Positions 33,312 through 63,695 of a stretch of 64,000 nt of DNA are shown piece after piece (the stretch's first letter is position 1; the number at the start of each line of letters is the position of its first letter). The notes below the pieces were generated by a model. It was not told the DNA's origin. It saw nothing but the letters and a program-made list of their open reading frames with translations, and searched no databases. The stretch is taken from positions 868,001 through 932,000 of the forward strand of contig NZ_JARVWQ010000001.1 of assembly GCF_029846255.1 (NCBI RefSeq). The letters are read 5' to 3'. Source of the stretch: Amnibacterium sp. CER49 (GTDB lineage Bacteria; Actinomycetota; Actinomycetes; Actinomycetales; Microbacteriaceae). Made by a program: the position numbers and the translations under genes.

Positions 33312-33328
33312 CGAGAGGCTCATCGCCG

Positions 33329-49955: not shown

Positions 49956-50807
49956 CTACCGAGCGGACCGGTCACGCCCCTGCTCGTGCAGCCGCAGCCG
50001 CGCGAGCAGGTCCCCGACGAGCAGTCGGAGGTCCACATCCGTGTACCGGCGGCGCTCGGCGGCCCCGGTCGATTCGAGAACGGACGAGCTCGACGCGTCG
50101 GTGAGCGCCGTGACGAGCAGGGGCGGGCTGTCGCCGAGCGTCCAGGTCGCCCCGACGGGGAACCCCTCCGGCAGCGGCAGCGTGACGAACCGCTCCCACA
50201 GCCACTCCCCGATCCGACCGGAGCGGCGCAGGTCGTGCTCGAGCTCGGCGATCGAGTAGGCGCAGCGCTCATAGGTCTCGAGCGGGAACCATCGGATGGC
50301 CAGCTCCGGCACCGCGAACACGAGCTCGGCGGCCGCCGGATCCGTGTCGCGGTTGTACTCGAAGCCGCGGTCCTCGGCGGCGCCGCCGATCCAGACGAGC
50401 GTGAGCCGCGTCGCGATGTCGGCTGCGAGCCGCAGCGCCTCCGCGACGTTCGTGAGCGGCCCGGCGCAGACGAGGAGCAGCGGGAGCGGGTCGTCGCGTC
50501 GGGCGGCGGCGACGATCGCCTCCGCGGCCGGGCTCGAGGCGTGGGTCAGCGCCTGCTCGGATCCGGCGACGACGGGCGGCCGCCGGTCCTTCCCGATCAG
50601 GTCGATCAGCTCCTCGGCCAGGGCGGCGCCCCGCGCCGCGCCCCCGGGCGACTCGAACACCGGGTCGAGGAACGAGCTCGTGACGAGCTCGACGCGGTTC
50701 GCGGGCGACAGCAGGTGGTGCGCGAGCGCGACGAGTCCATCGGGGTCGCCGGCCCAGTCGTTGTCGACGATCACCCGGCAGCGCTCGGCGACGCGGAGAC
50801 CGCTCAC
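49956..50807 (-). CDS. Nucleoside-hydrolase-like protein (2)
   Basis: A 283-residue member of the nucleoside hydrolase superfamily. The N-terminal motif DNDWAGDPDG (Asp15, Asp17, Asp21, Asp23) and the following LVALAHHLLSP match the gene at 40231. LLLVCAGPLTNVAEALRLA, LTLVWIGGAAED and LGDSPPLLVTAL complete the fold. GTG 50807 overlaps the stop of the Opp ATPase (GTGA), so it is the last gene of the importer operon. This suggests that it hydrolyses the imported compound, perhaps a nucleoside or other N-glycoside, but the altered acidic loop leaves substrate open. Confidence 0.8.
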   Translation of the reverse strand: MSGLRVAERCRVIVDNDWAGDPDGLVALAHHLLSPANRVELVTSSFLDPVFESPGGAARGAALAEELIDLIGKDRRPPVVAGSEQALTHASSPAAEAIVAAARRDDPLPLLLVCAGPLTNVAEALRLAADIATRLTLVWIGGAAEDRGFEYNRDTDPAAAELVFAVPELAIRWFPLETYERCAYSIAELEHDLRRSGRIGEWLWERFVTLPLPEGFPVGATWTLGDSPPLLVTALTDASSSSVLESTGAAERRRYTDVDLRLLVGDLLARLRLHEQGRDRSAR

Positions 50808-51841
50808 GGGACCGGCACGGGCCGCAGCGACGGCACCCGCTCCGCGTGGTGACACGCGCTGAGGCTGTCGCCGGCGTGCCGCAGCGGCGGCCGCTCGGCA
50901 CGGCAGACGTCGGTGACGAGCGGGCAGCGCGGCGCGAACGGGCAGCCGGCCGCAGCCGGAGCCGCGACACCGGCGGTGCGGAAGCCGAGCGCCTCGCGCG
51001 CCTCCCGCCGCGCGGCCTGCTCCGCCGGACGCGGAACCGGGGCTGCCGCGGTGAGCGCGACCGTGTACGGGTGCTGCGGCCCCTGCGTCACCGGCTCAAC
51101 GGGACCCGACTCCATGATCTGGCCGCGGTAGAGCACGACGACCCGCTGCGCGAGGAAGCGGACGACGCCGAGGTCGTGCGCGATGAAGAGGAAGGCGAGG
51201 TCGCGCTGGTCGCGCAGGTCGGCGAGCAGGTTCAGCACGGTCGCCTGCGTGGAGAGGTCGAGGGCGCTCACGGGCTCGTCGAGCACGACGACCTTCGGGT
51301 CGCAGACGAGCGCGCGGGCGATCGCGATGCGCTGCCGCTGGCCGCCGGAGAACTGCGCGGGGTACCGGTCCGCCGCGTCCGCGGGCAGGCCGACGGACTC
51401 GAGGGTGGCCCGCGCCCGCTGCAGCGCCTCGGCGCGACGCACGCCGAGCACCGCGAGGGGCTCGACGAGTGTCTGCCCGATGGTCCGGGACGGGTTCAGC
51501 GACGAGTACGGGTCCTGGAACACCACCCGCAGGTCGACGGCGAGGCCGCGGCGCTCCTTCAGCGACGCCTTCGTGATGTCGCGGCCGTGCAGCAGCACCG
51601 TGCCGGAGGTCGGCGGCTGCAGCCCGAGCACCGACTTGCCGATCGTCGACTTCCCCGAGCCGGACTCGCCGACGAGCCCCAGGGTCTCCCCCGGCCGGAT
51701 GTCGAACGTCACGCGGTCGATCGCGGGCGGCGCGAGCCGCGCCTTCCGGCTCGTGCCGTAGCGGACGACGAGGTCGGTGACCTCGAGCGCCGGCGCGGCG
51801 GCCGCGACCTCGGTCGTCCTGGTCCCGCTCGCCGCGCTCAT
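50804..51841 (-). CDS. Oligopeptide-type ABC transporter ATP-binding protein (OppF/DppF-like)
   Basis: A 345-residue ATPase. Walker A GESGSGKS at residues 58-65, the Opp-specific VVFQDPYSSLNPSRTIGQTL, signature FSGGQRQRIAIARAL, Walker B VVVLDEPVSALD and H-loop FIAHDLGV. The C-terminal Cys cluster CPFAPRCPLVTDVC is the usual oligopeptide/dipeptide ATPase tail. ATG 51841 overlaps the stop of the fusion gene (ATGA). Confidence 0.93.
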   Translation of the reverse strand: MSAASGTRTTEVAAAAPALEVTDLVVRYGTSRKARLAPPAIDRVTFDIRPGETLGLVGESGSGKSTIGKSVLGLQPPTSGTVLLHGRDITKASLKERRGLAVDLRVVFQDPYSSLNPSRTIGQTLVEPLAVLGVRRAEALQRARATLESVGLPADAADRYPAQFSGGQRQRIAIARALVCDPKVVVLDEPVSALDLSTQATVLNLLADLRDQRDLAFLFIAHDLGVVRFLAQRVVVLYRGQIMESGPVEPVTQGPQHPYTVALTAAAPVPRPAEQAARREAREALGFRTAGVAAPAAAGCPFAPRCPLVTDVCRAERPPLRHAGDSLSACHHAERVPSLRPVPVP

Positions 51842-53820
51842 GCCGGCACCCCCGCTCCGGTCTCGAGCTCCGCGCCGACCGCGTCGGCGTCCCACGTGAC
51901 CTGCTCGCGCTGCAGCTCGTCGACGCGGATGCAGCGCACCGACCCGCTGCCGTGCGCGGGCAGCGCCGGGAACGGCTTCCGGCACTCGTCGCGGGCGAAG
52001 CGGCAGCGGCTCGCGAAGCGGCACCCGCTCGGCCAGGAGCCGGGAGGCGGCACCGCGCCGGCGATCGAGGCGAGGCGGACGGGCACGGCGGCGCCCTCGG
52101 GCACGTGCGGGTTCGCCCGCAGCAGGGCCATCGTGTACGGGTGCGCCGGCTCGTCGAGCACCGCGGCGGCGGTGCCGGACTCGACGACCTCACCGGCGTA
52201 CATCACCGCGACGTCGTCGCAGAGGTCGGCGACGACCCCGAGGTCGTGGCTGACGATCACGATCGACAGGTCGATCTCGCGGACGAGGTCCCGCAGCAGG
52301 GTGAGGATCTCGGCCTGCACGGTCACGTCGAGCGCCGTGGTGGGTTCGTCGGCGATGAGCAGCTTCGGTCGGCCGGTGAGGGCGAGAGCGATCGCGACCC
52401 GCTGCGCCATGCCGCCCGACAGCTGGTGCGGGAAGCTCTTCAGCACCCGGGCCGGATCGACGATGCCGACCTGCTCGAGCAGCTCGACCGCCGTGGAGCG
52501 CGCCTCGGTGCGGCTGAGGCCCCGGAAGCGGCGCAACGGCTGCGTCAGCTGGTAGGCGATCGAGAACATGGGGTCGAGGGCGACCATCGGCTCCTGCGAG
52601 ATCATCGCGATCTCCTGGCCGCGGACGGCGTTCAGCTCGCGCTCCGAGAGCCCGACGAGGTCGCGCCCGCGCCAGAGGATCGCGCCGCCGGACACCGAGA
52701 CGCCGTCCGGGAGCAGACCGAGCAGCGACCGGGCCGTCATCGTCTTGCCGCAGCCCGATTCCCCCACGAGCCCGAGCACACGGCCGGCGCCGAGGCTGAA
52801 CGAGACGTCGCTCACGAGCGTCGGGCCGCCGTCGACCGCGACGGTGAGACCGCGGACCTCGAGCACGGCGGACGCACTCGGCGCTCCGTCCGCCGGCGAC
52901 GCGGGCGTGCGACCCGGGCGGCGCCGAGCGACGGTCCGCTCGCCGGCGGCCCTGTGGGCCAGCGCATCGGCGAGCTCGTTCGCGGCCACCACGGTGAGCG
53001 CGAGCGCGAGACCGCTCGGCACGAGCAGCCACGGGTCGTCGTAGATGTGCTTGCTGGCGTCCTGGATCATGAAGCCCCAGCTCGGCTGCGGCTCGCCCGG
53101 GCCGAAGCCGAGGAAGGCGAGGCCCGCGTTGATCAGCAGTCCGATGCCGAACAGCTGCGCCGCCTGCACGGCCGCGACCGTCGCCATCGACGGCAGCACG
53201 TGCACGAGGTTCACCTTCAGCGAGCCGATGCCGTTCACACGCGCGGCGTCGATGTAGAGGCGCTGCCGCACCGACTGGGCGACCCCGAGCATGATCCGGT
53301 AGACGGCTGCGGAGATGAGCACACCGAGCACCGCCATGACGACGTAGGTCTGCGCCCCGATCACGCCGATCACGGCGAGCAGGATGATGACGAGCGGCAG
53401 CGCGAGCATCACCTCCGTCGAGCGGCTGAGCACGCGCTCGACCCGCCGCCCGCGCTCCGCGGCGATCAGCGCGAGCGGCAGGCCGATGCCGAAGGCGACG
53501 ACGACCGTCACGAACGACGCGAGCAGCGGCTCGGCACCGGCGGTCACGACGCGGCTCAGCAGGTCGCGGCCGAGCGGGTCGGTGCCGAGCAGGTGCGCGC
53601 CCGACGGGAGCGCGAGCCGGTGCGCGAGGTCCTGGTCGTCGACGCGGTACGGGCGCCAGAGGGGTGCGGTGAACGACGCGACGACGATGAGCACGAGCCA
53701 GGCGGCGCCGAGCAGGCCGCCGGGGCGGCGGAGGAACCACGGCATCCCGCGACGTCGTGCCGTCGGCGCGGCGGGTTCGGGGGCGACCTCGTCGGCCGCG
53801 TCGAGAGGCAGCACGCTCAT
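51838..53820 (-). CDS. Fused ABC permease (DppC-like) and ATP-binding protein (DppD-like)
   Basis: A 660-residue fusion. Residues 1-295 are a DppC-type permease: first membrane segment at about 35-52, LLGTDPLGRDLLSRVV, the EAA loop DAARVNGIGSLKVNLVHVLP at 191-210, and FLGFGPGEPQPSWG. After a Pro/Ala-rich linker (about 296-318) comes a DppD-type ATPase with Walker A GESGCGKT (353-360), ISQEPMVALDPM, LSGGMAQRVAIALA and LLIADEPTTALD, then a terminal CRFASRCRFARDEC cluster. The fusion replaces two genes of a standard opp operon. Start overlaps the upstream permease stop (ATGA). Confidence 0.93.
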   Translation of the reverse strand: MSVLPLDAADEVAPEPAAPTARRRGMPWFLRRPGGLLGAAWLVLIVVASFTAPLWRPYRVDDQDLAHRLALPSGAHLLGTDPLGRDLLSRVVTAGAEPLLASFVTVVVAFGIGLPLALIAAERGRRVERVLSRSTEVMLALPLVIILLAVIGVIGAQTYVVMAVLGVLISAAVYRIMLGVAQSVRQRLYIDAARVNGIGSLKVNLVHVLPSMATVAAVQAAQLFGIGLLINAGLAFLGFGPGEPQPSWGFMIQDASKHIYDDPWLLVPSGLALALTVVAANELADALAHRAAGERTVARRRPGRTPASPADGAPSASAVLEVRGLTVAVDGGPTLVSDVSFSLGAGRVLGLVGESGCGKTMTARSLLGLLPDGVSVSGGAILWRGRDLVGLSERELNAVRGQEIAMISQEPMVALDPMFSIAYQLTQPLRRFRGLSRTEARSTAVELLEQVGIVDPARVLKSFPHQLSGGMAQRVAIALALTGRPKLLIADEPTTALDVTVQAEILTLLRDLVREIDLSIVIVSHDLGVVADLCDDVAVMYAGEVVESGTAAAVLDEPAHPYTMALLRANPHVPEGAAVPVRLASIAGAVPPPGSWPSGCRFASRCRFARDECRKPFPALPAHGSGSVRCIRVDELQREQVTWDADAVGAELETGAGVPA

Positions 53821-54758
53821 GCGGTCCGCACCTTCGGGTCGAGCGCCGCGACCATGAGGTCGAGCAGCAGGTTGGTGACGACGACCACGGCGGTCGCGAC
53901 GATGACGACGCCGATGAGCGCCGGGAAGTCGTGGGCGGACACCGCCGCCTGGCTCGCCTGGCCGAGGCCCGGCAGCGCGAAGAGGTTCTCGATGATCACC
54001 GAGCCGCCGAAGAGGCCGATGAACTGGATGCCGAGCACCGAGACGACGGGCACGCTCGTGAAGCGGAGCGCGTGCACGTAGCGGATGCGCCAGGTCGGCG
54101 TGCCGAGCGCCCGCAGCGTGCGGATGTGCTCCTGGCCGAGCGCCTCCCGCATGCCCGCGGCCGCGGTGCGGGCGATGATCGCGGCGCCGCCCACGGTCAG
54201 GGTGAGCACGGGCAGCAGGATGCTCCCGAGCCAGCCGAGCGGGTCCTGGCTGAGCGCGATGTAGCCGGTCGCCGGCAGCAGGTTCAGCTGCAGCGACAGC
54301 ACGAGGACGAAGAGGATCCCGACCCAGAAGGCGGGGAGGCTGAGGCCGATGCCGCTCCCGACGGTGATGATCCGGGCGAGCCAGCCGCCGCGGACCGCGG
54401 CGGTCACGCCGAGCACGATGCCGACGACACCGGAGAGCAGCGTCGCGAGCACGGCGATCGAGGCGGTCACCGGCAGCCGGGCCGCGAGGTCCGCGCCGAT
54501 GGAGCGACCGTCGATCAGCGAGACACCGAGATCGCCGCGGACGAGGTGGCCGAGGTAGTCGAGGAACTGGATCCAGAGCGGCCGGTCCCAGCCGAGCTCG
54601 TGGTTCTTCGCGGCGATCTGCGCCGGGGTGCCGCTCGGCCCGAGCACCACCGCGCCGGGGCTGCCCGGCGTCGCGTGCACGAGCAGGAAGCTGATCACCA
54701 CCGCGGCGAGGACCGTCGCGATCGCGATCGCGAGCCGTCGGCCGATGTAGGCGAGCAT
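53817..54758 (-). CDS. Oligopeptide-type ABC transporter permease (OppB/DppB-like)
   Basis: A 313-residue permease: N-terminal membrane segment YIGRRLAIAIATVLAAVVISF, then VHATPGSPG and LGWDRPLWIQFLDYLGHLVRGDLGVSL, the standard OppB periplasmic loop. The EAA loop is ALGQEHIRTLRALGTPTWRIRYVHAL and the closing IENLFALPGLGQASQAAV. It follows the SBP gene after a strong hairpin. Confidence 0.93.
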   Translation of the reverse strand: MLAYIGRRLAIAIATVLAAVVISFLLVHATPGSPGAVVLGPSGTPAQIAAKNHELGWDRPLWIQFLDYLGHLVRGDLGVSLIDGRSIGADLAARLPVTASIAVLATLLSGVVGIVLGVTAAVRGGWLARIITVGSGIGLSLPAFWVGILFVLVLSLQLNLLPATGYIALSQDPLGWLGSILLPVLTLTVGGAAIIARTAAAGMREALGQEHIRTLRALGTPTWRIRYVHALRFTSVPVVSVLGIQFIGLFGGSVIIENLFALPGLGQASQAAVSAHDFPALIGVVIVATAVVVVTNLLLDLMVAALDPKVRTA

Positions 54759-54796
54759 GTCGATCCCTTGGGTCAGCGCCGTTGCCGGGGACGGGG

Positions 54797-54826
54797 AGGG
54801 TGGCCGGGCCGGGGCCCGGCCACCCT
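54797..54826. terminator. Strong hairpin between Opp SBP and permease genes
   Basis: AGGGTGGCCGGGC (54797-54809) and GCCCGGCCACCCT (54814-54826) form a perfect 13-bp stem with a 4-base loop, 9 bases after the SBP stop on the minus strand. It probably lowers downstream transcription or stabilises SBP mRNA. Confidence 0.72.
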
Positions 54827-54834
54827 GGGTGTGG

Positions 54835-56421
54835 TCAGCTCGCGGGCTTGACGCTCGAGAGCACGATCTGGCCGTAGTTCGTGTAGAGCTCCGGCTTGGC
54901 GACCTTCTTCGCGTCGTAGCCGAAGTAGTTGAACGACTCGTACACCGGGATGTACCAGCCCTCGTTCGTGATCGCGGCGTCGAGGTTCTTCAGGGCCGCG
55001 TCCCGAGCGGTGCCCGTCGACCCGAGCGCCTGACCGAGGGCCGCGCCGATCTTGGGGTCCTGGGCGTGCTGCAGGTTCATGAAGCCGCCGTAGACGACGC
55101 CGGCGACGAAGCCGGCGGGGTTCGTGCCGATGCTGAAGGGCCCGAAGAGCAGCGGCTGCGTCTGGGCCGCCGCGAAGACGGCGTCGGTCGACGTGGCGGT
55201 CTTGAAGTTCAGCGTGACGCCGATCTTCGACCACTGCTTCTGGATCGCGACCTCGTCGTCCGTCGGCTTGCCGAGCACGGTGAGGTCGATCGAGAAGCCG
55301 TTCGGGTACCCCGCCTGGGCGAGCAGCCGCTTCGCCTTCGCCGGGTCGTACGCGTACTGCGTGTTGAGCGCCGGGTCGAAGCCGGTCGCGGCCGACGGGA
55401 ACAGCTGCGCCGTCGCCTTCGCGCCGGGGTGCAGGTCCTTCACGATGGTGGCGCGGTCGATGCCGTAGCTGAGCGCCTGACGCACCTCGGGCTTCGCGAA
55501 CGCCTTGTTCGTCCTGCCGAGCTTGTCGGCGACGGGGAAGCCGACGATGGTGCCGCCGACCTGGGTGACGCTCCTGCGGGCCTTCACGACGTTCGTCGTG
55601 CTCGGGTCGAGCTGGCCCGCGAGGTCGACCTGGCCGGAGGCGACCGCGTTCGCGAGCGACTGGGCGTCGGTGATCACCTTGAAGACGACCGTGTCGAACG
55701 CGAACGCCGTCGCGTCCCAGGCCTTCGCGTTCTTCTTCAGCGTGTAGGAGCTGCCGCGGGTCGCGGAGCCGAGCGTGTACGGGCCGGATCCGTCGGGGGT
55801 CGTCTTCAGGGACGAGGGGTCCGCGATCCCCTTGCTGCCGACGATCGCGCCCGCGCTGTCGGCGAGCGCGCTCGCGCCGTTCGCCTGCGGCTGCGCCCAG
55901 GTGATGACGACGGTGCTCGCGTCGGGGGTGGCGATGTCGGTGATCGCGCTGCTGCCGGTCTTCGACAGCTGCCCGTACGCCGCGAGCGTGGGGTCGCTCC
56001 GGCGGTCGAGGTTCTGCTTCACGAGCGAGGAGGTGAGCGTCGACCCGTCCGTGAACTTCACGCCCGGGCGCAGCTTCAGCGTGAAGGTCTTGTTGTCCTT
56101 GCTCGTGGTCGAGGAGGCGACGAGGCTCGGCTTCGCGTTCCCCGCGGCGTCCGTGACGAACAGCGCGTCGTACAGGCCCGCGAAGAAGCTGAACTGGCCG
56201 GCCGAGTAGAGCAGCGGGTCGTAGCCGTTCGGCGCGGCGTCCGCGTTCTCGCCGATGGTCACCGTCGAGGTCGTCGACGCACCGCCCGCGCTGCCGGACG
56301 CGCCGCCCGAGCAGGCGGCGAGCGACGTGGCCAGGGCGACGGCCGCGGCAGCCGCGCCGAGGCGCAGCCACGGAGCGCCCGAGCGGGCCGTCGGCGTCGG
56401 CGTCGGGGAGGGACGGTTCAT
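54835..56421 (-). CDS. Solute-binding lipoprotein, family 5 (Opp/Dpp type)
   Basis: A 528-residue SBP. The signal peptide ends in lipobox SLAAC (Cys37). Mature features include NGYDPLLYSAGQFSFFAGLYDALF, KTFTLKLRPGVKFTDGSTL, DGSGPYTL, EVRQALSYGIDRATIV and AKRLLAQAGYPNGF, all family 5. These proteins bind peptides but also glycosides, nickel and other compounds. The glycosidase neighbours here favour a glycoside. ATG 56421 follows AAAGGAG; the frame extends 34 codons further but into the promoter. Confidence 0.92.
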   Translation of the reverse strand: MNRPSPTPTPTARSGAPWLRLGAAAAAVALATSLAACSGGASGSAGGASTTSTVTIGENADAAPNGYDPLLYSAGQFSFFAGLYDALFVTDAAGNAKPSLVASSTTSKDNKTFTLKLRPGVKFTDGSTLTSSLVKQNLDRRSDPTLAAYGQLSKTGSSAITDIATPDASTVVITWAQPQANGASALADSAGAIVGSKGIADPSSLKTTPDGSGPYTLGSATRGSSYTLKKNAKAWDATAFAFDTVVFKVITDAQSLANAVASGQVDLAGQLDPSTTNVVKARRSVTQVGGTIVGFPVADKLGRTNKAFAKPEVRQALSYGIDRATIVKDLHPGAKATAQLFPSAATGFDPALNTQYAYDPAKAKRLLAQAGYPNGFSIDLTVLGKPTDDEVAIQKQWSKIGVTLNFKTATSTDAVFAAAQTQPLLFGPFSIGTNPAGFVAGVVYGGFMNLQHAQDPKIGAALGQALGSTGTARDAALKNLDAAITNEGWYIPVYESFNYFGYDAKKVAKPELYTNYGQIVLSSVKPAS

Positions 56422-56496
56422 GAGCAGGGGCTCCTTTGCCTTACCGGGCTTCGATCCGCGGCCGCCGGTCGCGGTCCTCGCGGGGATGTCCGGGAA

Positions 56497-56525
56497 GTTG
56501 TAGCACGGATCCGGGCGAATCAAAA
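56497..56525 (-). promoter_or_regulatory. Promoter of the opp operon
   Basis: On the minus strand TTTTGA (56525-56520) and TACAAC (56502-56497) are 17 bases apart; TTGATT with a 15-base spacer is an alternative. The palindromic site at 56531 lies just upstream of the -35, an activator position. Confidence 0.5.
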
Positions 56526-56530
56526 GTAAC

Positions 56531-56545
56531 TTTCGCAGAGCGAAA
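56531..56545 (-). promoter_or_regulatory. Palindromic operator TTTCGC-AGA-GCGAAA
   Basis: A perfect 6-bp-arm palindrome with a 3-base centre, located 5 bases upstream of the opp -35. A 13-of-15 match lies downstream of the -10 of the SDR operon (61271-61285). Such sites are typical in size of IclR-family regulators, and an IclR gene starts at 63768. Confidence 0.7.
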
Positions 56546-56575
56546 CAGGACGTGTCGCGAGGCGTCGACGAGGGG

Positions 56576-57817
56576 TCAGGCGAGGCGGCGGGAGCGGCTC
56601 ACGAGCCGTCCGTACTCGTGCGCGCTGGGCTTCGGCGTGCGCACGAACGTCGTCCTGTCGACCTCGTGCAGCCCGAGGCGGGGGCCGTAGCCGCCGACCC
56701 ACTCGAAGTTGTCGAGATGCGTCCAGTGGCAGTAGCCGAGCACCGGCACGCCCTCGGCGATCGCCTCGGCGAGCGCCTCGAGCGAGGGCTCCAGGAAGCC
56801 GACCCGCACCCGATCGTCGTGGGTGCCGACGCCGTGCTCGGAGACGAGCGCCGGCACGCCCGTCACCTCGTGGGCGTACCGCACGGCACCGGCGAGCGAG
56901 GCGGGTTCGACGGCGGACCCCATCTCGTTCAGCACGGCCCCGTCAGGGGCCGGGAGGGGCCCCTCCGGGCCGTGCACGACCCGCTCGTAGTTCTGCACGC
57001 CCACGAAGTCGTCCTCCGCGGCGAGCGCGAGCCAGCGACCGTACGCGGCCGCCCGCTTCGCGTCGCGGGCCGCCTCACCGCCCGGCGCCGCGACGTCGTC
57101 GACCATCGCGATCGAGAACCCGACGGGCAGGTCCGGGCGGCGGCCCTTGATCGCCGCCTTGCCGGCGCGATGGGCGGCCGTGAGCCCCTCCTCGATGGCG
57201 TCGTAGTCCTCCGGCTGCACGACGTTGCTCGCGCGGTACCGCTCGACCCCCGCCGCCTCGGAGGCGGCACTGAGGGTGGCGCGGGTCAGGTCGAGCACGG
57301 GCGGCGGAAGGATGAACGAGAGCAGCCGCGGCAGGTTCGGCTCGTTCAGGGTCATCGCGATCGCGATGCGGTCGCCGAAGCGCTCCATGACGACGTCGCA
57401 GTACCGGGCGAACCGGGGCGCCGCATCCTCGGCGAGCATCCCGCCCCTGGCCGCGAACCAGTGCGGGGCGGTGAAGTGGTTGAAGGTGACGACCGGCGCG
57501 AGCCCGCGGGCGACCGCACCGTCGACGACCGCCTCGTAGTGGTCGAGGGCCGCCTCGTCGATCCGGCCCGCCTCCGGCTCGACGCGCGCCCATTCGACGG
57601 AGAACCGGTAGGAGTTCAGGTGCATCGCGACCGCGAGGTCGAGGTCGGTCTCCCAGAGCTCGTAGCCGTTGCACGCACGGCCCGACGGCTCGCGGAAGAT
57701 CGTCGGCGTCACGTGCTCGAGGAACCACGTGTCGCTCGTCGTGTTGTCGCCCTCGTTCTGGTGGCCGGCGGTGGCGACCCCCCAGAGGAAGTCGGCGGGG
57801 AAGGTCGGATCAGGCAT
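56576..57817 (-). CDS. GH1 beta-glycosidase
   Basis: A 413-residue family 1 glycosidase. Begins FPADFLWGVATAGHQNEG, the GH1 N-terminal signature. The acid/base Glu159 is in TLNEPN. The nucleophile Glu327 is in SEHGVG, where most members have TENG, so the residue after the nucleophile is changed. YCHWTHLDNFEW contains the aglycone/sugar-binding Trp and Glu. It is slightly short for GH1 (usually 440-480). No signal peptide. ATG 57817 follows AAGGAG. It is between the FAH genes and the opp operon on the same strand, fitting hydrolysis of an imported beta-glucoside. Confidence 0.9.
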   Translation of the reverse strand: MPDPTFPADFLWGVATAGHQNEGDNTTSDTWFLEHVTPTIFREPSGRACNGYELWETDLDLAVAMHLNSYRFSVEWARVEPEAGRIDEAALDHYEAVVDGAVARGLAPVVTFNHFTAPHWFAARGGMLAEDAAPRFARYCDVVMERFGDRIAIAMTLNEPNLPRLLSFILPPPVLDLTRATLSAASEAAGVERYRASNVVQPEDYDAIEEGLTAAHRAGKAAIKGRRPDLPVGFSIAMVDDVAAPGGEAARDAKRAAAYGRWLALAAEDDFVGVQNYERVVHGPEGPLPAPDGAVLNEMGSAVEPASLAGAVRYAHEVTGVPALVSEHGVGTHDDRVRVGFLEPSLEALAEAIAEGVPVLGYCHWTHLDNFEWVGGYGPRLGLHEVDRTTFVRTPKPSAHEYGRLVSRSRRLA

Positions 57818-57871
57818 GTGTGCTCCTTGGACGTGTGACGGAGGCGTGCAGGGACGCCGGAGGCATGGTCG

Positions 57872-57903: not shown

Positions 57904-57915
57904 TGCCGGACGGGA

Positions 57916-58761
57916 TCAGGGGGCGGCGCGGAAACGCGTGCGGATGCTGCCGACGCCCTCGATCTCGCTGACGAGCTCCTCGCCGGGCGTGAGGAACCGC
58001 TTCGGGGTGCGCGCGTTGCCGACCCCCGAGGGCGTGCCCGAGAAGACCAGGTCGCCGGGCAGCAGCGTGCAGACGGCGGAGAGCCGCACGAGCAGCTCCG
58101 GCACGTCGTAGATCATCCGCGAGGTGCGGCCCGACTGCATCGTCTCGCCGTCGAGCCGGCACGAGATCGCGAGGTCGTCGCGGTCCGGCAGCTCGTCGGC
58201 CGTGACGAGCCACGGACCGGTCGGCCCGAAGCCCTCGTGCGACTTCGCGAGGCTGTACTGCGGCTTCGCGCCGGCGGACTGGGACACGCGCTCGGAGAGG
58301 TCCTGCCCCACCGTCACGCCCGCGACGTGCTCCCACGCCTGCTCGCGCGACAGCCGCCGCGCCCGCGTGCCGATCGCGAGGACGAGCTCGACCTCCCAGT
58401 CGACCGTCTCGGTCGGCAGCTCGACGACCGCGTCGGCGCCCGTGAGGCAGGTCGGGAACTTCGTGAACGTGATCGGTGCGGAGTCCGGCGGGTAGCCCGC
58501 CTCGTCGGCGTGCTCGCGGTAGTTCACGCCGATCGCGAAGACCTGCGGCGGGCGCGGGACGGGCGGTCCGAGCTGCTCGGGCGCGAACCGGACGTCCGGC
58601 TCGCCGGTCGCGCCCGCGGCCCAGCCGGCGAACCCGCCCCAGTCGGTGAACAGCGCCTGCGGATCGGCGCCGAAGCGGCCGTCCGAGGCCCGCTCGACGT
58701 CGAGACCGACGCCGTCGCCCGTGACGAGGACGGCGCGGCCGGCGACGTTCGCGACCCTCAT
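57916..58761 (-). CDS. Fumarylacetoacetate hydrolase-family protein (1)
   Basis: A 281-residue FAH-fold enzyme. FAIGVNYREHADEAGYP, ITFTKFPTCLTG, VDWEVELVLAIG (metal glutamates), VAGVTVGQDLSERV (metal Asp) and LLPGDLVFSGTPSGVGNAR are the family motifs. Members hydrolyse or dehydrate beta-diketo acids and 2-keto-3-deoxy sugar acids. Its ATG overlaps the stop of the second FAH gene (ATGA). The reaction cannot be fixed from sequence. Confidence 0.88.
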   Translation of the reverse strand: MRVANVAGRAVLVTGDGVGLDVERASDGRFGADPQALFTDWGGFAGWAAGATGEPDVRFAPEQLGPPVPRPPQVFAIGVNYREHADEAGYPPDSAPITFTKFPTCLTGADAVVELPTETVDWEVELVLAIGTRARRLSREQAWEHVAGVTVGQDLSERVSQSAGAKPQYSLAKSHEGFGPTGPWLVTADELPDRDDLAISCRLDGETMQSGRTSRMIYDVPELLVRLSAVCTLLPGDLVFSGTPSGVGNARTPKRFLTPGEELVSEIEGVGSIRTRFRAAP

Positions 58762-59636
58762 TCGGTCACCGAGACGGCGGGCTGCGGCTCGGGGGTGCCG
58801 TAGGCGTCCTCCCACGACACGACGCGGTTGCGCAGCACGCCGATGCCCTGGATCTCGGCCTCGACGACGTCGCCGGGCTGCAGGTAGAAGTCGAACGGGT
58901 TCTCCTGGATCGCGGCGACGCCCGAGACGGTGCCGGTGGTGAGCAGGTCGCCCGCGCTGTAGCCCTGCGGCGAGTGGAACGCGATGAGCTGCGGGATGGT
59001 GAGCCGCATGTCGTTCGTGTTGCCGGTCTGGCGCACGTCGCCGTTCACGCGCAGCTCCATCGCGAGCTCCTGGTAGTCGGGGATCTCGTCGGCCGTGACG
59101 ATCCACGGGCCGATCGGGCAGAAGGTGTCGATGCCCTTGCTGAACGAGAAGACGCCCGACTTCATCTCCCGGCGCTGGATGTCGCGCGCGGTGATGTCGT
59201 TGAAGACGGTGAAACCGGCGATGTACGACTCGGCCTCGTCGGGGCCGAAGAACTTGCCCTTCCTGCCGATCACGACGGCGAGCTCGAGCTCGTAGTCGAG
59301 CTCCTTCGTGAGGTTCGCGGGGTACACGATGTCGTCGTCGGGGCCGATGACCGCGTCGACGTTCTGGAAGAACACGATGCCCTTGTGCACGGGGTGCGAC
59401 CAGCTGACGGCGGTGAGCTCCTCGTGGTGCGCGGCGAAGTTGCCGGCGGTGTGGAAGAACTTCCTCGGCTGGATGGGCGCGCGCAGCCGCACGTCCTGCA
59501 GCTTCAGCCGCTCCCCCGTCTCGCGGACGTCGCCCCCGCGCTCGAAGTACTCGCGGGTCGACGGCACGTCGAGCTCGACGACGTCGTCGCCCTCGAGCCG
59601 CGCGACGCGGCCCTGGTCGAAGGTGATGAGCTTCAT
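58758..59636 (-). CDS. Fumarylacetoacetate hydrolase-family protein (2)
   Basis: A 292-residue FAH-fold enzyme of a second subgroup. RKFFHTAGNFAAHHEEL replaces the GxNYxxH stretch. LDYELELAVVIG, IAGFTVFNDITARDIQ and YSAGDLLTTGTVSGVAAI carry the metal-site Glu and Asp residues. It could act before or after FAH (1) in the same route. It is preceded by 25 bases and the stop of an SDR. Two different FAH genes beside two SDRs resemble non-phosphorylative sugar-acid pathways as well as aromatic meta-cleavage ends. Confidence 0.88.
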   Translation of the reverse strand: MKLITFDQGRVARLEGDDVVELDVPSTREYFERGGDVRETGERLKLQDVRLRAPIQPRKFFHTAGNFAAHHEELTAVSWSHPVHKGIVFFQNVDAVIGPDDDIVYPANLTKELDYELELAVVIGRKGKFFGPDEAESYIAGFTVFNDITARDIQRREMKSGVFSFSKGIDTFCPIGPWIVTADEIPDYQELAMELRVNGDVRQTGNTNDMRLTIPQLIAFHSPQGYSAGDLLTTGTVSGVAAIQENPFDFYLQPGDVVEAEIQGIGVLRNRVVSWEDAYGTPEPQPAVSVTE

Positions 59637-59661
59637 CTCGGACGATCCTTCCTCGGCGGCC

Positions 59662-60456
59662 TCAGGCGCCGACCATGTTGAAGCCGCCGTCGGCGAGCAT
59701 GTACGAGCCGGTCAGATGGGCCGCCTCGTCGGTGGCGAGCCAGAGGCACGTGCCCGCGACGAACTCGGGCGGCGGGATGACGCCCATCGGCGTCTGCGAG
59801 AGCAGCACCTCGCGGCGCCCGCTCTTCCAGTCCTCGCGGTTCAGCAGCCGCTCGGTCTCCATGAAGCCCGGCGCGAACGTGTTCACGCGGACCGCGGGCG
59901 CGAAGGCCTTCGCGTACGACTTCGTGATGCCGAGGATCCCGTACTTCGCCGCCGCGTACTGCGGCGCGCGGGGCGACCCGCGCACGATCACGGTGGAGCC
60001 GACGTTGACGATGCTCCCGTGGCCCTGCTCGAGCATCCGCGAGCCGAACTCGTGGGTCATGAGCAGCGTCCCCTTGACGTCGACGTCGATGACCGCGTCG
60101 AGCGCCTCCTGGGTCAGCTCGCGCCACGACATCTGCTCGGAGGAGACGTCCCCGACGTTGTTCACGAGCACGTCGAGGCCGCCGAACGCGGCCCAGACCT
60201 CGTCAGCCATGCGCTTGATCTCGTCCCAGGACGCGATGTCGGCCTGCACGAGGATGCCGTCGCGGCCCGCTTCGCGCACCCGCTCGAGCGTGCGCTCGGC
60301 GCCCGCCTTCGAGCTGCGGTAGTGGATGGCGACGTTCGCGCCCTCCTGCGCCGCGCGGGCCGCGACCTCGGCACCGAACCCGGTGCCGGCGCCGGTGACG
60401 AGCACCGTCCTGCCCTCGAACCGCGGGAAGATCCGCGGCTCCGTCGGATCGCTCAT
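59662..60456 (-). CDS. Short-chain dehydrogenase/reductase (1)
   Basis: A 264-residue classical SDR. Cofactor motif VLVTGAGTGFG near residue 18, VNNVG, the catalytic Ser in NVGSTVIV and YAAAKYG (Tyr-x-x-x-Lys). VRVNTFAPGFMETERL follows. HYRSSKAG after the second strand, with basic residues, would favour NADP. It starts 31 bases after the SDR upstream. Probable dehydrogenase of a sugar or a sugar-acid intermediate. Confidence 0.9.
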   Translation of the reverse strand: MSDPTEPRIFPRFEGRTVLVTGAGTGFGAEVAARAAQEGANVAIHYRSSKAGAERTLERVREAGRDGILVQADIASWDEIKRMADEVWAAFGGLDVLVNNVGDVSSEQMSWRELTQEALDAVIDVDVKGTLLMTHEFGSRMLEQGHGSIVNVGSTVIVRGSPRAPQYAAAKYGILGITKSYAKAFAPAVRVNTFAPGFMETERLLNREDWKSGRREVLLSQTPMGVIPPPEFVAGTCLWLATDEAAHLTGSYMLADGGFNMVGA

Positions 60457-60487
60457 ACGAGGACTCCTTCGATCTCGTGTCGGTCGG

Positions 60488-61252
60488 TCAGACGAGCGTG
60501 CGCCCGCCGTCGATGTAGAGGACGTGCCCGGTGATGAACTGAGCGTGCGGGGAGGAGAGGAACAGCGCCGGTCCCGTCAGCTCCTCGGGGGTGCCGAGCC
60601 GCCCGGCGGGCACCTGTGACTCGAGCTCCTCGCGCTTCCCCGGCTCCGCGAGATGGTGCGCGGTGAGGGGCGTCTCGATGTAGCCGGGCGCAAGGGCGTT
60701 CACGGTCACGCCGGCCGCCGCCCACTCGCGGGCCATGACGCGCAGCAGCTGGTTGATGCCGCCCTTCGACGCCGCGTAGGGGCCGTGCGAGTGGTGCGCG
60801 AGCAGGCCGGACACCGACGAGAGGGCGAGGACCCGGCCGGAGCCCTGCTCGACCATGTGGCGGCCGGCGGCCTGCGCGAGGCCGAAGAGCGTGGAGAGGT
60901 TGACGCGGAGGATCCGGTCCCACTCCTCCTCGGTGAAGTCGAGGATCGGGCGGCGGTCGTTGATGCCCACGGCGTGCAGCAGCACGTCGAGGCCGCCGAG
61001 CCGCGCGACCGTCTCCGCGACGACGGCGCTGCCGGCGCCGTGTGCGGTGAGGTCGGCCTCGATGCGCTCGCCGGTGAAGCCCTGGTCGCCGAGGGCGCCG
61101 AGGGCCTCGACGCTGCGATCGACGACGGCGACGCGGGCCCCCGCCGCCTCGTAGGCGAGGGCGCAGGCTCCGCCGATGCCGCCGGCGCCGGCGATGAGCA
61201 CGCGCCGGTCGAGGAGGCCGAGCCATGAGGCGTCGGGTGCGGTGTCGCCCAT
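60488..61252 (-). CDS. Short-chain dehydrogenase/reductase (2)
   Basis: A 254-residue classical SDR with cofactor motif IAGAGGIGGACALA, the Asp of VAVVDRS favouring NAD, catalytic Ser in ALSSVSGLL, and YAASKGG. The HAVGINDRRP segment replaces the usual NNAG. ATG 61252 follows AAAGGAG. First gene of the SDR-SDR-FAH-FAH operon, behind a consensus promoter and an operator shared with the opp operon. Confidence 0.9.
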   Translation of the reverse strand: MGDTAPDASWLGLLDRRVLIAGAGGIGGACALAYEAAGARVAVVDRSVEALGALGDQGFTGERIEADLTAHGAGSAVVAETVARLGGLDVLLHAVGINDRRPILDFTEEEWDRILRVNLSTLFGLAQAAGRHMVEQGSGRVLALSSVSGLLAHHSHGPYAASKGGINQLLRVMAREWAAAGVTVNALAPGYIETPLTAHHLAEPGKREELESQVPAGRLGTPEELTGPALFLSSPHAQFITGHVLYIDGGRTLV

Positions 61253-61270
61253 GCTCCGCTCCTTTGCGCG

Positions 61271-61287
61271 TCTCACTCTGCGAAAGC
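61271..61287 (-). promoter_or_regulatory. Operator of the SDR-FAH operon, related to the opp site
   Basis: On the minus strand CTTTCGCAGAGTGAGA (61286-61271) matches the opp palindrome at 13 of 15 positions, keeping TTTCGCAGAG exactly. It lies 8 bases downstream of the -10, a repressor position, and 18 bases before the SDR ATG. Confidence 0.65.
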
Positions 61288-61294
61288 AGGTTTC

Positions 61295-61323
61295 ACGCTA
61301 GGTCGCGCGTGCTCCGGTGTCAA
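61295..61323 (-). promoter_or_regulatory. Consensus promoter of the SDR-FAH operon
   Basis: TTGACA (61323-61318) and TAGCGT (61300-61295) are separated by exactly 17 bases on the minus strand. It lies inside the 3' end of the LysR gene; the TAG of the -10 is the LysR stop codon. Confidence 0.82.
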
Positions 61324-62212
61324 CCGCGGCGGACGCCGTGTCGAGCGCCACCTGCTCGAAGACGCGCACCACGGGGTCCTCGCCCCCGTCGCGGCTGCAG
61401 AGCAGGATCGAGGCCGGCGCGACGTCCTCGATCGGCACGAAGGCGAGCTGGTCCCGGCGGTAGTGCGTGGCGACCGAGGCGGCCGCGATGTTCACCCCGA
61501 CGCCCGCCGCGCAGAGCTCGAGGATCCCCTCGATGTCGTCCGCGGTGGGCCCTCGTCGCACCGGCCGGCCATCCGGGCGCGGGTCGACGAGCCAGGCGTC
61601 GAGCACCGCCGGGTCGCCCCCGGCGGGCGCGACGAAGACCTCGTCGGTGGTCTCCTCGATCCGCACCGAGGGACGTTCCGCGAGCGGATGCGCGGCGGCG
61701 ACCACGAGCACGCGCCCCTCCCGCAGCACCTCCATCGCGCGGATGCCCGGGAGCGGCGGCAGCGGCGCCGGCGTGAACGCGACGTCCACCGTGCCGGCGA
61801 GCAGCTCGCGCGGCGCGTCGAAGAACCCGAGGCGCCGCATCTCGAGCCGCAGGCCCGGGATGCGTTCGAGCGCGGCGGCGAGGATCCCGGTCGTGAGGGC
61901 GCCCGCCCCGGCGGCGACCACGCCGACCCGGAGCACACCGCTGCCGCCGCGGCGCGCCTCGGCCCAGTCGAGGACCGCCCGGTGCGCGCGCCGCGCCTCG
62001 CGCGCGAGCGGCAGCAGCTCGCGGCCCGCGTCGGTGAGCACGACCCGGCGGGGTCCGCGGTCGAGCAGCCGCGCGCCGAGCTGCGACTCGAGGCGGGCGA
62101 TCTGCTGGCTCAGCGTGGGCGAGGCGATGCGCAGCCGTCGAGCCGCCTCGCCGAAGTGCAGCTCCTCGGCGAGCACGCAGAAGTACTGGAGCGAGGTGAT
62201 GGGGACGTCCAT
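61298..62212 (-). CDS. LysR-family transcriptional regulator
   Basis: A 304-residue LysR regulator. The HTH is LHFGEAARRLRIASPTLSQQIARLESQLGARLL at about residues 18-50. The effector domain has VLRVGVVAAGAGALTTGIL, DVAFTPAPLPPLPG and GILELCAAGVGVNIAAASV. It is divergent from the quercetinase gene with a 110-base gap, the usual setting for direct regulation. The ATG at 62212 lies 7 bases after a TATCGT -10, so its mRNA is probably leaderless. The ligand is unknown; a flavonoid or aromatic compound is the natural guess. Confidence 0.93.
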   Translation of the reverse strand: MDVPITSLQYFCVLAEELHFGEAARRLRIASPTLSQQIARLESQLGARLLDRGPRRVVLTDAGRELLPLAREARRAHRAVLDWAEARRGGSGVLRVGVVAAGAGALTTGILAAALERIPGLRLEMRRLGFFDAPRELLAGTVDVAFTPAPLPPLPGIRAMEVLREGRVLVVAAAHPLAERPSVRIEETTDEVFVAPAGGDPAVLDAWLVDPRPDGRPVRRGPTADDIEGILELCAAGVGVNIAAASVATHYRRDQLAFVPIEDVAPASILLCSRDGGEDPVVRVFEQVALDTASAAVDTGARAT

Positions 62213-62219
62213 CCGCGGA

Positions 62220-62225
62220 ACGATA
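62220..62225 (-). promoter_or_regulatory. -10 element for a leaderless LysR transcript
   Basis: TATCGT on the minus strand ends 7 bases before the LysR ATG and no ribosome site is present. A matching -35 is not evident. Confidence 0.5.
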
Positions 62226-62322
62226 GCCTCCGCCTACCGCTCGGGAGGCAGGTCCGACTGGCGCTCGACCCGCTGCGTGCCGCAGCCTGTCCCGGTCACT
62301 TCAACGAGGAGGTCCGTCAGCC

Positions 62323-62895
62323 ATGTCGATCGACACCCCGCACCGCGTGGACGAGTCCGCGGAGCGCGACCAGTTCCCCGGCGTCCTGCCCGGCCGGCCC
62401 GTGCCCTTCACGCTCGGCAACGGCGAGGGCGAGAAGTCGGTGCTGTTCGGCGACCTCTTCACGATCCTGCTGTCGGGCGACGAGACCGAGGGCCAGTACG
62501 ACGTGTTCACCGCCGAGGGCCACGCGGGCAGCATGATCCCCGCGCACCTGCACATGTGGACCCACGAGATCTTCTACGTCGTCGACGGGGCGGTGCACGT
62601 CTGGATGGACGACGAGCACGGCACGAAGGAGGACCGGGTCCTCACCACCGGGGACTTCGCGTACGTGCCGAAGAACATCGTGCACGCCTACCGCTTCGAG
62701 GCGACGTCGAAGGTGCTCGGCACCTCGACGGCGGGCTTCGGCCGCTTCTTCCACGCCATGGGCCGCAAGACCGACAAGCCCGGCATCCCCGAGCCCGGCG
62801 AGATCTTCGTGCCGACCCGAGAGCAGATGCAGGCCGCGGGCGAGAAGTACGGCACCGTGTTCCGCCCCGAGTTCCGCTTCGACGAGGCCGAGTGA
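62323..62895 (+). CDS. Monocupin quercetin 2,3-dioxygenase-like protein
   Basis: A 190-residue single-cupin protein. Metal ligands are His75 and His77 (AHLHMW), Glu82 (HEIFYVVDG) and His121 (NIVHAYRF), the pattern of bacterial quercetinases. Length and spacing fit the monocupin QueD type of Streptomyces (about 186 residues) rather than the 337-residue bicupin of Bacillus. LGNGEGEKSVLFGDLFTILLSGDETEGQYDVFT at the N-terminus is also quercetinase-like. These enzymes open flavonols to a depside with release of CO. ATG follows GAGGAGG. It is translationally coupled to the next hydrolase. Confidence 0.82.
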   Translation: MSIDTPHRVDESAERDQFPGVLPGRPVPFTLGNGEGEKSVLFGDLFTILLSGDETEGQYDVFTAEGHAGSMIPAHLHMWTHEIFYVVDGAVHVWMDDEHGTKEDRVLTTGDFAYVPKNIVHAYRFEATSKVLGTSTAGFGRFFHAMGRKTDKPGIPEPGEIFVPTREQMQAAGEKYGTVFRPEFRFDEAE

Positions 62896-63695
62896 CGACC
62901 GTCCTCCGCGACGTCGTCTTCGCCGAGCGGATCGGCTTCCGGCCGCTGTCGCTCGACCTGCACCTGCCGGAGGCGCTGCCCGCCCCCGTCGTCGTGTTCG
63001 TGCACGGCGGCGGGTGGCGACTCGGCAGCCGCCGCACGTTCACACCCGGGATCCCCGAGGCGGCGTCGTTCGGCCGGATCACGGCGGCGGGCGTCGCGGT
63101 CGCCTCGGTCGACCACCGGCTGAGCGGCGAGGCACGGTTCCCGGGGCCGGTCGAGGACGTCGTCCTCGCGCTCGACTGGCTCGAGCGGGAGGGCGCCCGG
63201 CACGGCCTCGAGGGGCGTCCCGTGCTCTGGGGCGAGTCGTCCGGCGCGCACCTCGCGGCGCTCGCGGCGATCGCCGCGCCGGACCGCGTCGCGGGCGTCA
63301 TCGACTGGTACGGCCCCGCCGACCTGACGACCCTCGGCCGGCACCTCTTCCCCGACGACCCCGACCGCTTCGACCACGACGCGGGCACGCGCGAGGCGGG
63401 CCTGCTCGGCGGCCCGGTCGGCCTGCTCCCCGACGCGGCGCTCGCCGCGAGCCCGGCGCGGCAGGTGACGCCGGCGCTGCCGCCGTTCCTCGTCGCGCAC
63501 GGCGAGGCCGACGATCTCATGCCGATCGCGCAGAGCGAGGCGCTCGTCGCCGCGCTGCAGGCGGCAGGGGTCGCGGTCGAGTTCCACCGCGAGCGGGGTG
63601 CGGGCCACTTCTGGCGCGGGGCGACCGATGCGGGCGCCCTCTTCGACCGGGCCATCGGCTTCGCGCGGGAGCGCTTCCGCGCCGCGGCGCGTTGA
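62892..63695 (+). CDS. Alpha/beta hydrolase coupled to the quercetinase-like gene
   Basis: A 267-residue alpha/beta hydrolase of the BD-FAE/hormone-sensitive-lipase-like group. The oxyanion motif is HGGGW, the nucleophile elbow GESSGAH, the acid in HGEADDLMP and the His in GAGHFW. GTG 62892 overlaps the quercetinase stop by four bases (GTGA). A quercetinase forms an aryl ester (depside), so an esterase encoded next to it may cleave that ester; this is inferred from context only. Confidence 0.83.
   Translation: MTTVLRDVVFAERIGFRPLSLDLHLPEALPAPVVVFVHGGGWRLGSRRTFTPGIPEAASFGRITAAGVAVASVDHRLSGEARFPGPVEDVVLALDWLEREGARHGLEGRPVLWGESSGAHLAALAAIAAPDRVAGVIDWYGPADLTTLGRHLFPDDPDRFDHDAGTREAGLLGGPVGLLPDAALAASPARQVTPALPPFLVAHGEADDLMPIAQSEALVAALQAAGVAVEFHRERGAGHFWRGATDAGALFDRAIGFARERFRAAAR

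What the first reader, a model, noticed from the sequence alone, without database searches (positions are those of the whole stretch)
49956..63695. Possible flavonol-glycoside (rutin-like) catabolic system spanning two regions
A monocupin quercetinase, a coupled esterase-type hydrolase, a GH1 beta-glycosidase and a dedicated Opp-type importer lie together. The same window has four GH78 rhamnosidases, a GH3 enzyme and a full L-rhamnose pathway at 11147-34570. All glycosidases lack signal peptides. Together these are the steps needed to take up a rhamnoglucoside of quercetin intact, remove rhamnose and glucose, burn the rhamnose and open the aglycone. Families are seen in sequence; that they form one system is inference.
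Basis: partly seen in the sequence, partly recalled or inferred. Interest (0 to 1): 0.75.

Follow-up and report, generated by a model that had tools for sequence, protein, structure and literature searches.

The report
Flavonol glycoside degradation gene island
An actinobacterium carries a block of genes that looks able to import plant flavonols such as quercetin glycosides, strip off the sugars and break both aromatic rings, one of them perhaps by a route not described before.

Summary
The cupin (62323-62895) is a close homologue of the solved quercetinase QueD, followed by an esterase-type hydrolase; GH1, an Opp importer and a GH78 lie beside it. With an IclR regulator and a CMD-family gene at the window end they form a conserved cassette. 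In 14 cassette loci examined, IclR, CMD, SDR1, FAH1 and FAH2 occur in 14, cupin plus hydrolase in 13, SDR2 in 10. In 249 family genomes cupin (two weak matches dropped) and cassette occur in 7 each, 6 shared. Two operator motifs link quercetinase, GH1/Opp and cassette in relatives. A pobA-pca operon for the B-ring follows the window. I conclude: a flavonol-glycoside catabolic island whose cassette probably turns the A-ring product into acetoacetate and acetate. CoA-transferase genes stay beside it in four genomes lacking PcaH above cut-off. All substrates are inferred. Unity with the distant rhamnose region (11147-34570) is not shown.

The parts
62323..62895 (+). monocupin quercetinase (QueD-like)
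   Evidence: QueD 5fli/5flh E 2e-37; H75, H77, E82, H121 invariant in 11 of 11 homologues aligned
62892..63695 (+). alpha/beta hydrolase (BD-FAE family), proposed depside esterase
   Evidence: Pfam BD-FAE 131.8 bits; adjacent to the cupin in 13 of 14 cassette loci, and adjacent (2) or one gene away (1) in 3 cupin-only loci
61298..62212 (-). LysR-type regulator, divergent from the cupin
   Evidence: Pfam HTH_1 and LysR_substrate
62224..62236 (.). LysR box TAG-N7-CTA in the LysR-cupin intergenic region
   Evidence: present in 6 of 6 divergent LysR-cupin regions scanned; shuffle frequency 0.004-0.04 each
60488..61252 (-). SDR2, NAD-type dehydrogenase (Asp45 after beta2)
   Evidence: Pfam adh_short_C2; D45 invariant in 9 of 9; in 10 of 14 cassette loci
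59662..60456 (-). SDR1, NADPH-type reductase; 70-91% identical across cassette loci
   Evidence: nearest solved structures are FabG reductases
58758..59636 (-). FAH1, FAH-family C-C hydrolase; most invariant columns of the cassette proteins (177)
   Evidence: Pfam FAA_hydrolase 227 bits; E116/E118/D147 and H70/E73 invariant in 9 of 9
57916..58761 (-). FAH2, FAH-family C-C hydrolase
   Evidence: Pfam FAA_hydrolase 205 bits; E123/E125/D154 and H84/E87 invariant in 9 of 9
56576..57817 (-). GH1 beta-glycosidase
   Evidence: Pfam Glyco_hydro_1; nearest structure 4r27 E 5.8e-112
56522..56534 (.). GAAAGTNACTTTC operator (1 mismatch) before the Opp genes
   Evidence: only site with 1 mismatch or fewer in the 3.36-Mb genome; seven others have 2
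61282..61294 (.). possible weak copy of the same operator (3 mismatches) before SDR2; such matches are common by chance
54835..56523 (-). Opp-type solute-binding lipoprotein (real start probably 56421)
   Evidence: Pfam SBP_bac_5 213 bits; start
53817..54758 (-). Opp-type permease
   Evidence: Pfam BPD_transp_1
51838..53820 (-). Opp-type permease fused to ATPase
   Evidence: Pfam BPD_transp_1, ABC_tran, oligo_HPY
50804..51841 (-). Opp-type ATPase
   Evidence: Pfam ABC_tran, oligo_HPY
49956..50774 (-). nucleoside-hydrolase-like protein
   Evidence: Pfam IU_nuc_hydro 57 bits; homologues beside GH78 in G199 and G893 and beside GH1 in G835
47232..49841 (+). GH78 alpha-L-rhamnosidase next to the cluster
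   Evidence: Pfam Bac_rhamnosid6H 322 bits
63768..64000 (+). IclR regulator, runs off the window; CMD-family gene, second IclR and the convergent pobA-pca operon follow outside (G000:C1:932562-941667)
28091..34570 (+). L-rhamnose pathway (RhaM, RhaI, RhaD-type aldolase, rhamnulokinase, L-lactate dehydrogenase); linked to the cluster only by function

Best explanation
An island for growth on flavonol glycosides. The Opp importer takes up the glycoside and cytoplasmic GH78 and GH1 remove rhamnose and glucose. The monocupin opens ring C of the flavonol with release of CO, and the neighbouring hydrolase splits the resulting depside into a B-ring acid and 2,4,6-trihydroxybenzoate. B-ring: 4-hydroxybenzoate (from kaempferol) or protocatechuate (from quercetin) goes through PobA and the beta-ketoadipate operon just outside the window. 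A-ring: the cassette (CMD, SDR1, FAH1, SDR2, FAH2) degrades trihydroxybenzoate/phloroglucinol to acetoacetate and acetate, which enter metabolism through CoA transferase and thiolase. Shown: protein families, conserved linkage, shared operator motifs, the pca operon. Inferred: every substrate, the order of the A-ring steps, uptake of intact glycoside, and which regulator binds which motif.
For: Cupin is a QueD homologue with the 3His-1Glu positions invariant. Cupin (7 after dropping two matches at 30-31%) and cassette (7) occur in 249 family genomes, 6 shared; hypergeometric 1.6e-10, relatedness ignored. The linkage is kept in a second Micrococcales family. LysR box in 6 of 6 LysR-cupin regions and 3 of 6 GH1-Opp regions. 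Operator GAAAGTNACTTTC, 2 mismatches or fewer: 15 sites in intergenic DNA of nine cassette loci against 0.48 expected and 0 in four stretches without it; 12 of the 15 lie before SDR2, GH1/Opp or cupin. PobA, PcaH, PcaG, PcaB, PcaDC and CoA-transferase genes follow. ScoA/ScoB lie in the cassette stretch in four genomes (G066, G924, G952, G835) where no PcaH passes the cut-off. FAH1 and FAH2 keep the metal triad and His-Glu dyad (roles recalled). A reductive SDR plus retro-Claisen route for phloroglucinol is known from anaerobes (PMC10470551).
Against: No activity is shown. SDR1 is nearest to FabG reductases; no chain named phloroglucinol reductase is among the 60 shown of 645 or of 351, though deposit names are often generic. 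SDR2 is missing from the cluster in the four loci read of the second family; a 53-57% homologue lies elsewhere in all seven of those genomes, in another gene cluster in the two read. FAH1 relatives at 58-62% sit in a different cluster. Three loci of the second family scanned lack the operator; the LysR box is not in the GH1-Opp gap of the window, L015 or G143. G066 has the cassette without cupin or glycosidases. The anaerobic pathway uses other families for three of its four steps.
Confidence: 0.6

Rival explanations
1. The SDR/FAH cassette is a non-phosphorylative sugar-acid route (for L-rhamnose or another deoxysugar released from the glycoside), ending in a 2,4-diketo-3-deoxy acid hydrolase.
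For: Both FAH proteins have 2,4-didehydro-3-deoxy-L-rhamnonate hydrolase as best NCBIfam model, and L-rhamnose 1-dehydrogenase is among the more than 200 SDR models matched by each SDR. 8gsr, such a hydrolase, is second and third among solved structures for FAH1 and FAH2. FAH1 also has a weak match to an FAH-fold sugar-acid dehydratase (2q18, E 4e-8).
Against: Scores are far below the curated cut-off (184 and 167 against 500). No separate dehydratase or lactonase is in the set shared by the loci. L-rhamnose already has the isomerase-aldolase route here. The cassette stands without glycosidases in the G066 stretch, beside ScoA/ScoB.
Confidence: 0.15
2. The cassette acts on the A-ring product but in another order, for example directly on trihydroxybenzoate, with the CMD protein in a role other than decarboxylase.
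For: CMD function is inferred from the family alone. SDR2 is not kept at the cluster in all loci, so the redox steps may differ from the anaerobic scheme.
Against: Nothing tested here separates the orders; an NADPH-type and an NAD-type SDR fit reduction followed by oxidation.
Confidence: 0.3
3. The cupin acts on a substrate other than flavonols, or only detoxifies flavonols, and the cassette is a neighbour for plant phenolics in general.
For: QueD-like cupins with hydrolase but without cassette occur in G073, G578 and G493. G066 has the cassette without the cupin.
Against: B-ring and sugar branches lie at the same place; GH1 is in 8 and GH78 in 6 of the first 9 cassette loci.
Confidence: 0.12
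4. Region 11147-34570 is a separate island for other rhamnosides (for example pectic rhamnogalacturonan fragments) and not part of the flavonol system.
For: Own sugar ABC importer and two LacI-type regulators, read by eye; no operator site with 2 mismatches or fewer there.
Against: It supplies GH78 enzymes and the rhamnose pathway that the flavonol route would need.
Confidence: 0.5

Closest known systems
QueD, monocupin quercetinase (PDB 5flh/5fli; source Streptomyces sp. FLA is recalled)
   Same: Single cupin domain, alignment over residues 19-186 of 190, same 3His-1Glu positions.
Anaerobic phloroglucinol pathway of Clostridium scatologenes (PGR, DPGC, TfD, TAL; PMC10470551, abstract, Results part 1, prevalence section and Discussion read)
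   Same: Proposed logic: SDR reduction, retro-Claisen ring cleavage, oxidation, second C-C cleavage to acetoacetate, then CoA transferase and thiolase. The paper also lists the cluster in Mesorhizobium, Bradyrhizobium and Mycobacterium.
   Different: Two FAH-family hydrolases in place of the cyclase-family DPGC and the BKACE-family TAL; an SDR in place of the 3-hydroxyacyl-CoA-dehydrogenase-like TfD; oxygenase steps upstream in a presumably aerobic host.
Fungal rutin pathway (glycosidases, quercetinase, esterase; passages of PMC4462102 and PMC5557065 read)
   Same: Deglycosylation, CO-releasing ring opening, split into protocatechuate and a phloroglucinol moiety.
   Different: Importer, dedicated regulators and gene sets for both ring fragments in one place; enzymes without evident signal peptides.
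Beta-ketoadipate pathway (pca)
   Same: PobA, PcaH, PcaG, PcaB, PcaDC and CoA transferase genes in one row.
   Different: The thiolase passes an acetyl-CoA C-acetyltransferase model but not the PcaF model.

Membership tests
QueD-type monocupin quercetinase | Single cupin domain with near full-length similarity to QueD | tested here: met
   132.5 bits, E 1.9e-37, residues 19-186 of 190
QueD-type monocupin quercetinase | 3His-1Glu metal ligands (role recalled) | tested here: met
   H75, H77, E82, H121 align with QueD and are invariant in 11 of 11
QueD-type monocupin quercetinase | CO release from flavonols | not testable with these tools
   needs an assay
Anaerobic phloroglucinol pathway (PGR/DPGC/TfD/TAL) | SDR-type phloroglucinol reductase | tested here: inconclusive
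   SDR1 keeps Ser-Tyr-Lys and an NADPH-type loop, but no chain so named is among the 60 hits shown in each search
Anaerobic phloroglucinol pathway (PGR/DPGC/TfD/TAL) | BKACE-family TAL in the cluster | tested here: not met
   the one BKACE frame found in the genome is on the other contig
Anaerobic phloroglucinol pathway (PGR/DPGC/TfD/TAL) | Cyclase-family DPGC in the cluster | tested here: not met
   none among the family-searched cluster genes; the rest of the genome was not searched for it
Anaerobic phloroglucinol pathway (PGR/DPGC/TfD/TAL) | 3-hydroxyacyl-CoA-dehydrogenase-like TfD in the cluster | tested here: not met
   none among the family-searched cluster genes
FAH superfamily hydrolase | Metal triad and lid His-Glu dyad (roles recalled) | tested here: met
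   invariant in 9 of 9 for both FAH1 and FAH2
2,4-diketo-3-deoxyrhamnonate hydrolase route | NCBIfam NF053535 above cut-off; separate dehydratase in the cluster | tested here: not met
   184 and 167 bits against 500; no separate dehydratase in the shared set
Beta-ketoadipate pathway | PcaH, PcaG, PcaB, PcaDC, CoA transferase | tested here: met
   PcaH, PcaG, PcaDC, PcaI- and PcaJ-family models above cut-off; PcaB is the best model for its protein but below its cut-off

The most novel reading that the evidence does not exclude
A route for the flavonol A-ring in Micrococcales that uses no oxygenase on that ring: CMD-family decarboxylation of 2,4,6-trihydroxybenzoate, NADPH-dependent dearomatisation of phloroglucinol by SDR1, retro-Claisen ring opening by FAH1, oxidation by SDR2 and cleavage of triacetate by FAH2 to acetoacetate and acetate. 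FAH-family hydrolases would replace both C-C cleaving enzymes of the anaerobic pathway.
Probability: 0.4. Interest if true: 0.75.

Novelty: new variant of a known kind. Interest (0 to 1): 0.6.

Why it matters
Flavonols are common plant compounds and quercetinases are long known (recalled), but I found no described gene set that joins quercetinase to degradation of the phloroglucinol half, nor an FAH-based phloroglucinol route, in ten answered paper searches (listings, three papers opened). The known anaerobic-type phloroglucinol cluster is reported also in genera such as Mycobacterium and Bradyrhizobium (PMC10470551), so reductive phloroglucinol use outside strict anaerobes is not itself new. 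This island names five or six candidate genes, their regulators and operators, and simple tests. If right, it gives a marker for full flavonol use in actinobacteria and a new role for FAH-family hydrolases.

Tried and rejected
AlphaFold model of FAH1 from three sequences: mean pLDDT 35, not used. Plasmid search with FAH1: no match at 1e-60; with the cupin: four distant actinobacterial records, under 60% identity, not followed. The named-genome scan with the cupin confirmed two loci. In the phylum sample the cupin was found at 1e-30 in 3 of 396 genomes and FAH1 at 1e-80 in 6 of 396; the five FAH1 hits other than the own genome (58-62%) lie in a different cluster and were dropped. Two cupin hits at 30-31% identity (G164, G007) were dropped from the count of seven. 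The search for perfect palindromes in the cupin promoter regions gave none shared by all; only G178 and L016 shared some. My gene caller missed genes in G199 and G178; presence was re-scored by tblastn. The motif GAAAGTNACTTTC was found by eye on some of the same sequences, so only the G893 site is independent. At 3 mismatches the motif is no better than background (31 coding, 13 intergenic sites). TAG-N7-CTA also occurs in two intergenic places away from the cluster (L016 1078, G091 5449). Of the seven FAH1-bearing genomes of the second family I read the cassette stretch in four (G924, G952, G977, G835); G771, G934 and G995 were not opened. No LysR-box scan was run on the five loci opened last, and no operator scan on G835.
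Full report
Setting. The window is G000:C1:868001-932000 of a 3.36-Mb genome in two contigs; GC of the window is 73%. The nearest named relative found is an Amnibacterium MAG (L015; cupin 90% identical), a genus of the Microbacteriaceae. Four other genomes of the same genus in the sample lack cupin, FAH1 and SDR1 at the thresholds used: the island is patchy.

Anatomy. From a 110-base gap between LysR (61298-62212, minus) and the cupin (62323-62895, plus) two gene rows diverge. Leftward: LysR, SDR2, SDR1, FAH1, FAH2, GH1, Opp binding protein, permease, permease-ATPase fusion, ATPase, nucleoside-hydrolase-like gene, with gaps of 98 bases or less. Rightward: cupin, hydrolase, IclR, then outside the window a CMD-family gene and a second IclR; a convergent row follows with thiolase, CoA transferase B and A, PcaDC, PcaB, PcaG, PcaH and PobA. 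That these rows are operons is inferred from spacing. A GH78 gene (47232-49841) lies next to the left end.

Families. The cupin matches QueD over residues 19-186 of 190, and the four residues recalled as metal ligands are invariant in 11 of 11 homologues aligned. The hydrolase is of the BD-FAE family. GH1 is nearest to 4r27 among solved structures. FAH1 and FAH2 belong to FAA_hydrolase and keep, in 9 of 9 loci each, the metal triad and the His-Glu dyad that I recall as typical of the hydrolases. After beta2 SDR1 has a Tyr-(Arg/Asn)-(Ser/Arg)-Ser loop without Asp, SDR2 has Asp-Arg, and both keep Ser-Tyr-Lys; from general knowledge this suggests NADPH for SDR1 and NAD for SDR2.

Conservation. 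Of 249 family genomes nine have a cupin match at 1e-15; seven are at 44% identity or more, and two at 30-31% were dropped. FAH1 (1e-100) and SDR1 (1e-90) are each found in seven genomes, the same seven. Six genomes have both cupin and cassette (hypergeometric 1.6e-10, relatedness ignored). G073 has the cupin only, G066 the cassette only. A tblastn table over 12 loci gives: IclR, CMD, SDR2, SDR1, FAH1 and FAH2 in 9 of 9 cassette loci and in none of 3 cupin-only loci (G073 shows only 28-31% SDR matches); cupin, hydrolase, LysR and GH1 in 8 of 9; Opp binding protein in 6 of 9; GH78 in 6 of 9; PcaH in 4 of 9. The stretches reach at most about 20 kb to a side, and L015 and L016 are 20 kb in all, so absences are local.

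A wider look. FAH1 at 1e-100 occurs in 9 of 396 genomes of the order: the own genome, G893 of the same family and seven of one genus in another family. I read five further cassette stretches (G893, G924, G952, G977, G835): all five have cupin, hydrolase, LysR, IclR, CMD, SDR1, FAH1 and FAH2. SDR2 is in G893 only; all seven genomes of the second family have a 53-57% SDR2 homologue elsewhere, which in the two read (G924, G835) sits in another gene cluster. Totals over 14 cassette loci: IclR, CMD, SDR1, FAH1, FAH2 in 14; cupin and hydrolase in 13; SDR2 in 10.

Regulation. TAG-N7-CTA, a T-N11-A site of the kind recalled for LysR regulators, is in 6 of 6 divergent LysR-cupin regions and in 3 of 6 GH1-Opp regions (not in the window, L015 or G143); shuffle frequencies in the nine regions with a site are 0.004-0.053. 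Two more intergenic matches lie away from the cluster. The palindrome GAAAGTNACTTTC with at most 2 mismatches occurs at 16 intergenic places and 1 coding place in 13 stretches. By position: before SDR2 seven, before GH1 or Opp four (window 56522 among them), before the cupin two (L016, G178), between CMD and a second hydrolase two, before another hydrolase in G091 one. In intergenic DNA of the nine cassette loci 15 were counted against 0.48 expected (maximum 2 in 60 resamples; the window site overlaps my gene start and is not in this count), and 0 in four stretches without cassette. In the own genome 8 sites have 2 mismatches or fewer (control pattern 3), and the window site is the only one with 1. 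G893, opened later, has a site with 1 mismatch between SDR2 and CMD; G924, G952 and G977 have none. That IclR is the binder is inferred.

Where the cassette leads. In fungi quercetinase gives CO and 2-protocatechuoylphloroglucinolcarboxylic acid, said to be cleaved to phloroglucinol and protocatechuic acid (passages of PMC4462102); an esterase step is described in passages of PMC5557065. That the first A-ring product is 2,4,6-trihydroxybenzoate is recalled. The B-ring half has its gene row. For the A-ring half the shared genes are CMD, two SDRs and two FAH hydrolases; no oxygenase is in that shared set. In Clostridium scatologenes phloroglucinol is reduced by an SDR, opened by a retro-Claisen hydrolase, oxidised, and cleaved to acetoacetate; the authors list such clusters also in Mesorhizobium, Bradyrhizobium and Mycobacterium (PMC10470551: abstract, Results part 1, prevalence section and Discussion). 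FAH enzymes are recalled to act on 3,5-dioxo acids, which makes triacetate a fitting substrate. ScoA and ScoB lie in the cassette stretch in G066, G924, G952 and G835 (with a thiolase in the last three), and none of these four genomes has PcaH above cut-off; G952 and G835 show weak matches below it. So there the transferase probably serves another 3-oxo acid; acetoacetate fits.

Limits. No substrate has been tested. SDR1 is FabG-like in the solved-structure searches, and whether a characterised phloroglucinol reductase is nearer was not tested. FAH1 relatives in another cluster show that the family is not specific to phloroglucinol. The distant rhamnose region shares function but no operator site. 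The novelty statement rests on ten answered paper searches in an open-access library, which misses most subscription journals.

Verdict.

Noticed in passing
L023-L024 (G143:C9), joined coordinates 10454-12655: GH1 glycosidase and a second esterase-like domain read as one 733-residue frame: a possible fusion for acylated flavonoid glycosides (the esterase part is related to the window hydrolase in the clustering).
   Followed up: partly
window 49956-50774 and 40195-41157; G199, G893, G835: Nucleoside-hydrolase-like proteins beside GH78 or GH1 in several of these islands; perhaps a glycosidase for furanosides.
   Followed up: no
L067-L076 (G423, G564, G359, G466, G366): A different conserved cluster in distant actinobacterial families: FAH1-like hydrolase at 58-62% with molybdenum-hydroxylase-like, LLM-type, peptidase-like and ABC importer genes (names by eye apart from FAH).
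   Followed up: partly
L015:4660-5559, L016:12836-13708, G178, G199, G042: A second alpha/beta hydrolase (Abhydrolase_3, tested in L015 only) in 5 of 9 cassette loci but not in the window cluster.
   Followed up: no
G066, G073, G091 stretches: An oxidoreductase and sugar-isomerase-like gene pair (names by eye) near cupin or cassette in three loci; could relate to C-glycosides, or be chance.
   Followed up: no
G000:C1:933893-935107 (L029:1994-3208): The thiolase of the pca row passes an acetyl-CoA C-acetyltransferase model but not the PcaF model; it may serve both beta-ketoadipyl-CoA and acetoacetyl-CoA.
   Followed up: no
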